Of a stretch of DNA of 64,000 nt, positions 18,801 to 62,185 are shown in pieces. How positions within the stretch are numbered: the first letter of the stretch is position 1; every line of letters starts with the position of its first letter. Position numbers and translations under genes: made by a program. The stretch covers positions 838,501 through 902,500 of the forward strand of contig JAPDOI010000020.1 in NCBI GenBank assembly GCA_029168955.1, in the 5' to 3' direction. The stretch comes from Aplectana chamaeleonis. Taxonomy: Eukaryota; Nematoda; Chromadorea; Rhabditida; Cosmocercidae. The notes beneath the pieces were generated by a model. It made no database searches. It was not told where the DNA came from and saw only the letters and a program-made list of their open reading frames with translations.

Positions 18801-21800
18801 ATGGTGGTTGGAGCCGGAGTCAGTTTACGCATTCGCGTCTGCGTTCTGTACGAATTCAAGCTGGAACACGACCAGCTGACGGCCGTGGAGAACATCAACA
18901 AGGCATTTGGTAGTGGAACAGTAGGCAAACATCTGGTATTTGGAATGTACAAAAGATTTCGGGCTGGTTTCGTGAACGTAGAGGAGGACTTTCCGAAGAG
19001 GACGTATGATACGAAGCAGTCGATTGTGGATCAGGACGCGCTCAGAAGTATTGTTGAGGAGAATCCGAGGATCTCACAATACTCACTGTCCAAACAGTTT
19101 GGCGTGTCTAGAGGAACGATTAAGGCCGCATTGGATAGAATAAAGGCTGGGAAGAAGAGCACATACAATCCATTGAAAGCGGAACAGTGGAAGAAAATGA
19201 AGGTATATTCGCGATTTATTCGTTCCAGCCGTCTATTTTGGAGCGAACTTCACTTTATTCCTCCGCGTGCGTCTGCGCAGCGGGCAAAGAAGAAGTAGCG
19301 TCCGCGCGCACACGCACGCGATGGACTCGAGTGAATTTCGCTTTGAAATAAAGGGTGAATTCCGGTTGTTTCAGATCGGACATTCACTCTTCAAAGAGCA
19401 ATTCACTAACCATTCCTACCCAAGGTTAATCCAAAACATAATCAGGTACACTTATTAAACAAAACCTTGTTGAACACCTCAACTTCTATATTCTTAAACA
19501 TTCCCCTCGTTCCAGATGCCTTGAGTCAAATCGAAGAAACCTTCGCCTCAGGCATAAAAGAAATCATTTTGAAAATTTCAGTCGGTGGGCCGAAAAAAGC
19601 GCAGTGACTGCCAGCTTCTGACTGAAAACACAAATAAAAGATATCACAAGTTGACTGAGTGGAACGCAAAACTCAGATGTCAGGCAGGACTCGAATCTGC
19701 ATTGCTTGCTTCCCGGGCGAGAGTGTTACCATTACACCACCGACACCCCGTTCTGCATTCCTCGGCTATTAGCAGCTAATAGCTGAGGAATGCAGAGCAG
19801 TGTGCCGGTGGTGTTATGGTAACACTCTCGCCCGGAAAGCGTGCAATGCAGGCTCGAGTCCTGCCTGACATCTGAGTTTTGCGTTCAACTGTGCCAACCT
19901 GTGTCCGTATATCATGTTATCTGAAAAGAAACTGAGGAAAACTCCTAATAGAGCGCGCACGCCGTTGGAAGCGTGAAAAACGAGTTAAAATTGTCATATT
20001 TTAGCCCAGACAGCGAAGCCCAACGTGTCCGCCCACTTTCTTTACAGCTCCCACCCCTCAATACCAAGTCGTCTAATTTGACTGATTGAATATCGCGATT
20101 TTGGCTAGTCTAAAGGTAGCATACATTCTCGTAAACGTGGTTGAGATAAGTACGTAAACAGAATGATATGGCACACAACACAATGCCTACGCATTTTAAA
20201 GCGTCAAAAACGACCCACAATGCCCCTACCCAAGTAAGATGTTGGCTCCGCCCCTGTATTTGCCGTCCTCCACAACATTTGTGCTAGGCCATTCCCACCG
20301 TCTTCGAGGTTTGTAGGTGGTACAATAAGTACTGTGCTTATCGGGGCCAAATTTCGGTCCGCAATTGCGTCTGGACACGCTTTGCGGCCGCACGCGCTCA
20401 ATTCAATAGAGTTTCCAGCGCCAAAGCCGACTCGATGTTGCTTTTTTATACAGTTTTCTCCAATTTTGTTTATTTTCCAGTTTCCGAAACCCACCTAGAG
20501 TCAAAAAATCGGCGGCTGCAGCGCTGGGAACTCTTCCGACTCGAAAGGGCGCGGCCGCAACGCGTGTCAAGACGCAGTTGCGGACCGAAATTAGGCCCAG
20601 AGAAGCACAGTTAACCACATAAATCGACGACGGTGGGAATCCCAGCTACCCGTTTTGGAGGACGGCAAATTCAGGGGGGGGGGGCAACTTCTTACTCGTG
20701 TAGCGGTACGTTGGGTCGTATTTGACGCTTCAACATGTATAGGTGTTGTGTTCTGAGCCATTCCAATCTATTCCTGTAGTTATCTGAAACTTGTTTACGA
20801 GCGTGTATGCTGCCTTCAAGATGCTCCCAACGAAGTAAGCGTTCTAGAAGAGGTCCGCGAGTTAGCTTTGCCATCTCCACTATCTCATGGCTAGTTTCGC
20901 AATTTTGTCCGAGCGTGCATGCTGCTGTGCAACTCGTCTTTTTCCAACTCAACACAGAACCGACCCGCTATTTTTCAATTTTCATAGCGTTTTCGTCGAT
21001 TTTTTCGTCAGTTTAACTATACTGCCACCTCCAACCCTTCTATTTATGTCAACATATCAAGATCATTTTTGGGCTTATATGCTGCCTTTAAGTTTGAGTG
21101 TGGCACTAATAGCACCAAGTGTATGAAAAACGTTTGCGAACCTATAGACACAGTAGCGTGCGAGAAGTCTTTGGGGCAGGGTCAAGCAACCTGTTGGACG
21201 AAATGCTTTCGTTGTGGTGACCCCCCCCCATTCGTGGCAAAGCTTTGCGACCCCATCCCTAACAGTGGCAGCGTTGCATTCAAGGTAGACCGTTTGCTGA
21301 GGATTTGAATGCTCGTCAAAACTGCAATTGTCCAATTAGTCAAAAATGGTTTCTGAAGGCCTGCTAGTGTTATATATATATATATATATATATATATATA
21401 TATATATATATATATATATATATATATATATATATATATATATATATATATATATATATATATATATATATATATATATATATATATATATATATATATA
21501 TATATATTGCTCTTACGGGTCGCAACTCAGCGGTTCGGTGAAATAGACCCAATAGTAAAGTAGAAAAAAGCAAAGCTATTTATGTAGAGTGAGAAACAGA
21601 AAAATCGCCCGTTGGAAAAAGTGGTGTGAAAGGCCGTTTTTTTTTGAAATGGCCTTTTCAGCCTAGGTTTTCATTTTTACAAGACCGCAGTCGAGCGCAT
21701 GATGCATCTACTGGATGGTTATCGAAAATTACTCTAGCTGGATTTTCTCTCTAAGAATGTTTTCTCGTAATTTTCTACCACACCATGTGCTCCCCCTTTG

Positions 21801-62185: not shown

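What the first reader, a model, noticed from the sequence alone, without database searches (positions are those of the whole stretch)
18801..62185. Tandem array of five paralogous genes built from a mariner-type DNA-binding domain without a transposase core
Seen: five plus-strand genes each open with an exon encoding a Mos1/mariner-like bipartite HTH domain and continue in short exons of acidic or low-complexity sequence; joined exons are open and in frame in all five. Known: mariner transposases recognise their ends with two HTH modules (first module: HTH_48) before a DD34D core. Inference: this is a domesticated and locally expanded DNA-binding family, possibly transcription or silencing factors acting on transposon-derived sites. 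I know of no described multigene family with this exact architecture, but HTH_48 domains do occur in other nematode proteins, so novelty is not certain.
Basis: partly seen in the sequence, partly recalled or inferred. Interest (0 to 1): 0.92.

Follow-up and report, generated by a model that had tools for sequence, protein, structure and literature searches.

The report
Transposon-derived DNA-binding gene array
A roundworm genome carries at least 13 side-by-side genes, five of them in this window, that kept only the DNA-gripping front end of a jumping-gene enzyme and have new predicted tails; relatives exist in livestock worms, and the proteins are predicted to switch other genes on or off, with the predicted DNA-reading positions differing most between recent copies.

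Summary
Five plus-strand genes in the window (G1-G5) open with an exon for the bipartite mariner HTH domain and have no transposase core. The array continues past the window to at least 13 first exons in about 128 kb, all on one strand; three genome searches recognised no further member elsewhere (capped lists). A sixth HTH_48 ORF in the window (26.26-26.64 kb) is not a member: it is a recent, internally deleted mariner. The models have outside support: G2 (7 exons, 338 aa) is 39% identical along its length to a Haemonchus contortus protein and shares its C-terminal ending with it and with a Nippostrongylus protein. G13 groups with another Haemonchus gene; G4-G12 form a group seen only here. 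The domain is under purifying selection and dimer-interface positions are kept, but SETMAR's AT-hook arginines and R432 are gone, and base-reading positions differ most between recent duplicates (8/12 vs 71/290). I infer dimeric nuclear DNA-binding regulators with diversified specificity. DNA binding is untested; the nearest precedent, Caenorhabditis F-box A2 proteins, bound none of the inverted repeats tried. My ten literature searches listed no paper on this family.

The parts
18801..19202 (+). G1 exon 1: bipartite mariner-type HTH domain
   Evidence: HTH_48 30.2 bits; acceptor-like site 8 nt before ATG
22500..23049 (+). G1 tail exons 22500-22614, 22674-22766, 22831-22893, 22948-23049 (3' end unresolved; 23173-23229 resembles the Teladorsagia tail, but at E 0.14 only)
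   Evidence: open joins; tblastn
26097..26653 (+). internally deleted mariner with 31-bp terminal inverted repeats 26097-26127 / 26623-26653 and a truncated transposase N-terminus; not a member of the array
   Evidence: 39 other scored copies (40 of 914 candidates scored) listed at 100% over about the first 530 bp; three fetched copies are 1.27-1.29 kb between repeats, one with a 343-aa open frame
30308..30655 (+). G2 exon 1: HTH_48 plus divergent second HTH
   Evidence: HTH_48 52 bits; 62% identical to Ostertagia P0005 over 103 aa
34325..39874 (+). G2 tail exons 34325-34406, 36241-36276, 36338-36481 (VKEEVKEE), 37846-38022, 38079-38159, 39726-39874 (stop; ends EEMKDHIVPLF)
   Evidence: 338-aa product 39% identical to H. 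contortus P0055, E 1e-66; exon 37846-38022 was added with the help of that match
43779..44147 (+). G3 exon 1: bipartite HTH domain
   Evidence: HTH_48 54.3 bits
47012..47099 (+). G3 basic exon 2 (tentative)
   Evidence: splice and codon score, in-frame join
51737..51837 (+). G3 terminal exon, ends AREHIHYLF stop
   Evidence: acceptor CCTTTTCAG; best-scoring terminal exon of the interval
54487..54864 (+). G4 exon 1: bipartite HTH domain
   Evidence: HTH_48 56.8 bits; SETMAR DBD E 4.3e-13
57832..58676 (+). G4 tail exons 57832-57925, 58493-58573, 58627-58676 (ends VHVHYLDD stop)
   Evidence: in-frame joins; exon 2 52% identical to that of G5 over 27 aa, E 0.001
59209..59574 (+). G5 exon 1: bipartite HTH domain
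   Evidence: HTH_48 63.2 bits
61790..62185 (+). G5 tail exons 61790-61892, 61983-62051, 62106-62185 (stop)
   Evidence: exon 2 91% and 73% identical to array tails at 93.8 and 98.0 kb; outside the array no match better than E 2.6

Best explanation
These are host genes made from the paired helix-turn-helix DNA-binding domain of a mariner transposase, kept under purifying selection without the catalytic core, and their proteins likely work as dimeric nuclear regulators that bind DNA and recruit partners through short tails. Shown: the domain, the absence of the core, spliced models of which G2 is matched along its length by annotated proteins in other nematodes, tandem expansion, purifying selection on the fold, conserved dimer-interface positions, a recurring C-terminal motif. 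Inferred: entry to the nucleus (basic stretch after the domain), dimer formation through HTH1, DNA binding, tail motifs (C-terminal [DE]MxEH[IV]xxLF, psi-K-x-E sites) acting as docking or SUMO sites that probably repress transcription, and different target sequences for different paralogues.
For: Fold: SETMAR DBD 7s03 E 4.3e-13 and Mos1 E 5.5e-8 by sequence; AlphaFold model finds 7s03, then Mos1, then Pax paired domains by Foldseek. No core in 163.5 kb. The 13 array rows are one split from 20 mariner-type rows (SETMAR and Mos1 among them), support 94/94, 93% of 200 bootstrap trees. dN/dS: G4-G5 0.28, G7-G10 0.17, G8-G11 0.30, G6-G9 0.57. Dimer-interface positions named in PMC9062482: 344 Y in 13/13, 363 F/Y in 13/13. 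The four base-reading HTH2 positions differ in 8/12 codons of three recent pairs vs 71/290 other codons, p=0.003. C-terminal motif: strict pattern after G2-G4 gives 5 plus-strand hits outside the window, 4 of them tails, 0 on the minus strand, simulated mean 0.18; close endings in H. contortus P0055, Nippostrongylus P0057 and T. colubriformis P0001. psi-K-x-[ED]: 16 vs 5.6 shuffled in 13 tails (7 of this array, 6 of other species).
Against: No expression or binding data. SETMAR's AT-hook arginines and R432 are missing in 13/13 genes, so HTH2 may bind DNA weakly or not at all; exposed residues also drift when binding is lost, and HTH2 as a whole is only weakly constrained in two pairs (dN/dS 0.72 in G6-G9, 0.70 in G11-G12). 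In the F-box A2 family the same module showed no DNA binding to the mariner-like repeats tried and no nuclear signal in the adult germline (PMC12062965, section 8 read). The structure model is modest (pLDDT 76.8, pTM 0.46, six rows of which one is the window's own mariner) and superposes poorly as a whole (TM 0.42, rmsd 13 A to 7s03). The C-terminal motif was found clearly in 7 of 13 genes (in G7 without a checked splice acceptor), weakly in G5, not in G1, G6, G8, G9, G13; its search pattern was written after the outside copies had been seen. Five of seven psi-K-x-E sites of the array tails are in G2 alone. The specificity test rests on three pairs. The wider tree split has only 85/77 support.
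Confidence: 0.6

Rival explanations
1. The HTH domain has become a protein-protein interaction module, as proposed for Caenorhabditis F-box A2 proteins, and the proteins are adaptors with no DNA target.
For: F-box A2 HTH domains failed EMSA and tended to interact with many proteins (PMC12062965, sections 6, 8, 13 read, passages of 7, 9 and 10 seen). Several base-contact residues of SETMAR are not kept here.
Against: No F-box or FTH in six tails or in G2 and four relatives. Both HTH modules are retained together, HTH2 core positions such as L404, P412, A420 and V425 being the same in 12 of 13. Some tails carry strong basic clusters soon after the domain, e.g. KKRKRKKKKAK in H. contortus P0002 and KSKRKRSKRS in G10.
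Confidence: 0.22
2. Dominant-negative repressors of live mariners: core-less transposase relatives that occupy inverted repeats or form dead dimers with transposase.
For: Mariners are abundant and partly very recent in this genome (8116 first-look HTH_48 candidates, of which 150 were scored; many copies listed at 100%). HTH1 dimer positions are kept.
Against: No array gene carries the same set of residues at the five base-reading positions as any of the 14 mariner-type rows compared; the array is separate from those rows in the trees; identity to the best mariner hits of G4 is about 33%.
Confidence: 0.1
3. Decaying transposon copies or pseudogenes with chance open exons.
For: One further copy at region 141349-141563 is degenerate; the interval is full of repeats.
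Against: 13 open first exons on one strand, each with an acceptor-like site within 23 nt of the ATG, dN/dS below 1, a G2 orthologue with a collinear tail in Haemonchus, no core.
Confidence: 0.03

Closest known systems
F-box A2 family of Caenorhabditis (fbxa-215 and others; PMC12062965)
   Same: Nematode multigene family with an N-terminal mariner HTH_48 module captured once, lying in one exon, expanded and under purifying selection (as the paper reports).
   Different: Partner there is F-box plus FTH; here short basic/acidic tails with a C-terminal motif and no F-box. Restricted there to the Elegans group; here in strongylid nematodes.
SETMAR (primates; PMC9062482, passages read)
   Same: Host gene that keeps the bipartite mariner DNA-binding domain; closest solved structure.
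   Different: SET domain and retained transposase-derived catalytic domain, still binds the ancestral inverted repeat; here no SET, no core, several contact residues replaced, many paralogues.
HIM-17 network of C. elegans (PMC9757741, abstract read)
   Same: Nematode regulator related to a transposase that controls host promoters.
   Different: THAP domain; regulates promoters co-opted from MITEs.
KRAB zinc-finger gene clusters (recalled, no call)
   Same: Tandem arrays in which base-contact residues diversify while the fold is kept.
   Different: Unrelated domain and partner; analogy only.

Membership tests
Mariner transposon / transposase | catalytic DD34D core behind the HTH domain | tested here: not met
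   no core match below E 0.77 in 163.5 kb
Mariner transposon / transposase | terminal inverted repeats around the ORF | tested here: inconclusive
   found for the 26.1-kb element; G1-G5 span several kb each and were not scanned one by one for inverted repeats
F-box A2 family | N-terminal HTH_48 module in one exon | tested here: met
F-box A2 family | F-box and FTH domains downstream | tested here: not met
   Pfam: no family in six tails; in G2 full length and four relatives only HTH_48, and PF01710 in one, pass a cut-off
SETMAR | SET methyltransferase domain fused to the DBD | tested here: not met
   no SET domain in G2 full length and four relatives
SETMAR | TIR-contact residues R371, R392, R395, R417, H427, S428, R432 | tested here: not met
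   R392, R395, H427 and R432 in 0/13; R371 in 7/13; S428 in 4/13; R417 in 3/13
Sequence-specific transcription factor (works like) | paired HTH fold of the mariner/Pax type | tested here: met
   whole-chain superposition is poor (TM 0.42)
Sequence-specific transcription factor (works like) | binds DNA in the nucleus | not testable with these tools
   needs SELEX/ChIP and localisation

The most novel reading that the evidence does not exclude
A nematode counterpart of the KRAB zinc-finger system: a strongylid host gene captured the mariner DNA-reading domain once, and in this lineage a tandem array keeps minting new DNA-binding specificities on a fixed dimer scaffold, with a shared C-terminal docking motif calling in one silencing machinery, possibly against the mariners that flood this genome.
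Probability: 0.2. Interest if true: 0.88.

Novelty: new variant of a known kind. Interest (0 to 1): 0.66.

Why it matters
It looks like an independent second case, in another nematode group, of a mariner HTH domain becoming a multigene family, now without the F-box partner, and with orthologues in worms that are studied in the laboratory (Haemonchus, Nippostrongylus). That makes it possible to ask directly whether a transposase DNA-binding domain can seed a diversifying regulator family. The members found are filed as hypothetical, 'Mos1 transposase HTH' or even 'SETMAR' proteins, which hides them.

Tried and rejected
Tried without result: single-protein search with the G4 model (207 candidates, none at E 0.01); Pfam on six tails and on ten long ORFs, eight of them upstream of the array (none); tblastx between gene territories, swamped by repeats; a terminal exon for G1, G6, G8, G9, G13. 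A first version of the C-terminal regex was too narrow (2 plus-strand hits) and was replaced. The joined G7 model used a wrong acceptor and is not relied on. Considered and rejected: the 26.26-kb ORF as a paralogue (it is a mariner); the NDMKEHVHDLF exons as a dispersed repeat (4 matches genome-wide at E up to 0.94, all in the array); the three best outsiders of the G1 genome search as further members (all three have mariner cores).

Literature: 10 searches in an open-access library; none listed a paper on this family. I saw titles and abstract starts; one search showed 10 of 634 papers. Most subscription papers are not held.

Full report
Setting. The window is C20:838501-902500 of a 1.04-Gb genome in 2087 contigs. 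The nematode leader SL1 (pattern recalled) occurs 1024 times exactly, the reversed control 0 times, so the source is a nematode. The relatives found below suggest a strongylid; the species was not identified.

The observation. Pfam HTH_48 passes its cut-off in first exons at 18801, 43779, 54487, 59209 and 30308. I call these G1, G3, G4, G5 and G2. The 26264 ORF also passes (72.8 bits), but it sits between 31-bp inverted repeats only about 0.55 kb apart. The search scored 40 of 914 candidates; the 39 other copies are listed at 100% over about its first 530 bp. Three fetched copies measure 1.27-1.29 kb between repeats, and one of them has a 343-aa open frame. It is a recent mariner deletion copy that landed in the array.

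Extent. A whole-genome search with the G4 exon, and an HMM on 163.5 kb joined from the window and ten fetched stretches, give 13 first exons, all on the plus strand, C20:857301 to 985068. Searches with G4, G1 and G13 scored 150 each of 4012, 2489 and 3372 first-look candidates. In the G4 search non-array hits reach at most 59.5 bits; G3 ranks among them and G1 is not listed. In the G1 search some outsiders rank above array members; the three best (C70, C1475, C62) were fetched and all carry mariner cores. A very divergent member elsewhere cannot be excluded. Three neighbours look duplicated as a block: G6-G8 match G9-G11 at 80, 75 and 72% nucleotide identity around the first exons. A 14th copy near region 141.35-141.56 kb is degenerate.

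Gene structure. Every first exon has an acceptor-like site within 23 nt of the ATG (13 of 13), as expected for trans-splicing or a short 5' exon. In the modelled genes exon 1 ends in phase 0 and later exons are joined in phase 1. G4 and G5 tails resemble each other in exon 2, and the G5 tail has close copies at 93.8 and 98.0 kb; outside the array its best match is E 2.6. A G10-type terminal exon has four matches in the genome, all in the array.

Outside support. Profile searches of the public protein collection, with A2 (13 first exons; 54 proteins of 1239 candidates) and A3 (six array models with P0001, P0002, P0005; 30 of 6802 candidates at E 1e-10), found relatives named as Haemonchus contortus (P0002, P0004, P0055), H. 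placei (P0003, P0058), Trichostrongylus colubriformis (P0001, P0062), Ostertagia (P0005), Cooperia (P0056), Teladorsagia (P0059) and Nippostrongylus (P0057). Of all hits I read 23 sequences; several of the others are labelled with a transposase core. The 7-exon G2 model (339 codons with the stop) is 39% identical to P0055 over residues 3-338 (E 1.4e-66). Five of its exons had been chosen before any relative was known, the 38079 exon was in the candidate list, and the 37846 exon was placed with the help of P0055 and P0057, so that exon is not independent of the match.

Origin and descent. The array is one split from 20 mariner-type rows (94/94; 93% of 200 bootstrap trees). With ten strongylid proteins the family of 23 rows is still one split from 17 others, at 85/77 (84% of bootstraps). 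G2 groups with Haemonchus, Ostertagia and Nippostrongylus (100/99), G13 with Haemonchus P0002/P0003 (98/81); G4-G12 form a group of this genome only (95/92). G1, G2, G3 and G13 have long branches, so their deeper placement is unsure.

Selection and the DNA-reading face. dN/dS (NG86) for the closest pairs is 0.17-0.57. Using the contact list of the SETMAR-DNA structure (PMC9062482, passages read), positions of the HTH1 dimer interface are kept (344 Y in 13/13; 363 F/Y in 13/13; 341 C in 10/13, I in SETMAR), while both AT-hook arginines and R432 are absent in 13/13. The five base-reading positions are more variable than random sets of five (mean entropy 2.48 vs 1.61, permutation p 0.007), and in G6/G9, G7/G10, G8/G11 the four HTH2 positions differ in 8 of 12 codons against 71 of 290 (Fisher p 0.003); with 371 included 9 of 15 against 70 of 287. 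Without these positions HTH2 has dN/dS 0.08-0.63 in five pairs, with them 0.12-0.72, so constraint on HTH2 is weak in G6/G9 and G11/G12. I read this as changed and diversifying specificity; loss of binding at HTH2 with retained folding is the alternative.

Tails. Pfam finds nothing in six tails. Basic clusters follow the domain in G3 (tentative exon), G7, G10 and in P0002; no localisation program was run. A C-terminal ending [DE]M-x-[ED]-H-[IV]-x-x-[LM]-F or close occurs in G2, G3, G4, G7 (no checked acceptor), G10 (two exon copies), G11 and G12, weakly in G5, and in 4 of 11 records from other species (P0001, P0055, P0057, and more loosely P0002), some of the other records being partial. A strict pattern modelled on G2-G4, but written after the outside copies had been seen, gave 5 plus-strand hits in the 99.5 kb outside the window, 4 of them these exons and one at 75225 that is not, none on the minus strand, and 0.18 on average (at most 2) in 60 simulations. 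Psi-K-x-[ED] sites are enriched (7 array tails: 7 vs 2.5, p 0.010, five of the seven in G2; six tails of other species: 9 vs 3.1, p 0.002).

Comparison with the known. The F-box A2 family (PMC12062965; sections 6, 8 and 13 read, other passages seen) is the nearest kind: a mariner HTH captured once and expanded in Caenorhabditis. It fails as a home for this family because F-box and FTH are absent. That paper also warns that such a domain may not bind DNA. [quoted passage not shown]

Verdict. A real, domesticated, locally expanded family with conserved relatives in strongylid nematodes; a new variant of a known kind. The molecular role is inferred.

Noticed in passing
window 26097-26653; loci L046, L048: A very young mariner family (copies listed at 100%). 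Two of three fetched full-length copies lie inside long minisatellite arrays of a repeat translating as SSDALCTLHDTLMT, as if element and satellite spread together.
   Followed up: partly
L001, L002, L004, L006-L008: Dozens of near-identical HTH_48 matches in frames of about 60 aa; the six read lose mariner similarity right after HTH1: an abundant short mariner-derived repeat carrying only the first HTH.
   Followed up: partly
window 38630-38710, minus strand: Short stretch reading EWPSQSPDLNPIEH, typical of Tc1-type transposases (recalled), inside the last intron of the G2 model.
   Followed up: no
L032:4516-4879 (region 98016-98379): A second copy of the G5/G8-type tail exons with no HTH exon of its own found.
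   Followed up: partly
L036 about 7849-8063 (region 141349-141563): Degenerate extra first exon of the family between G12 and G13.
   Followed up: partly
H. contortus P0002: A family member named 'histone-lysine N-methyltransferase SETMAR' in a public record although Pfam finds no SET domain.
   Followed up: yes
window 62655-63300: Nested inverted repeats, seen by eye, with a 96-bp unit (63108-63203) 94% identical to one at 24167-24262; looks like a fold-back element.
   Followed up: no
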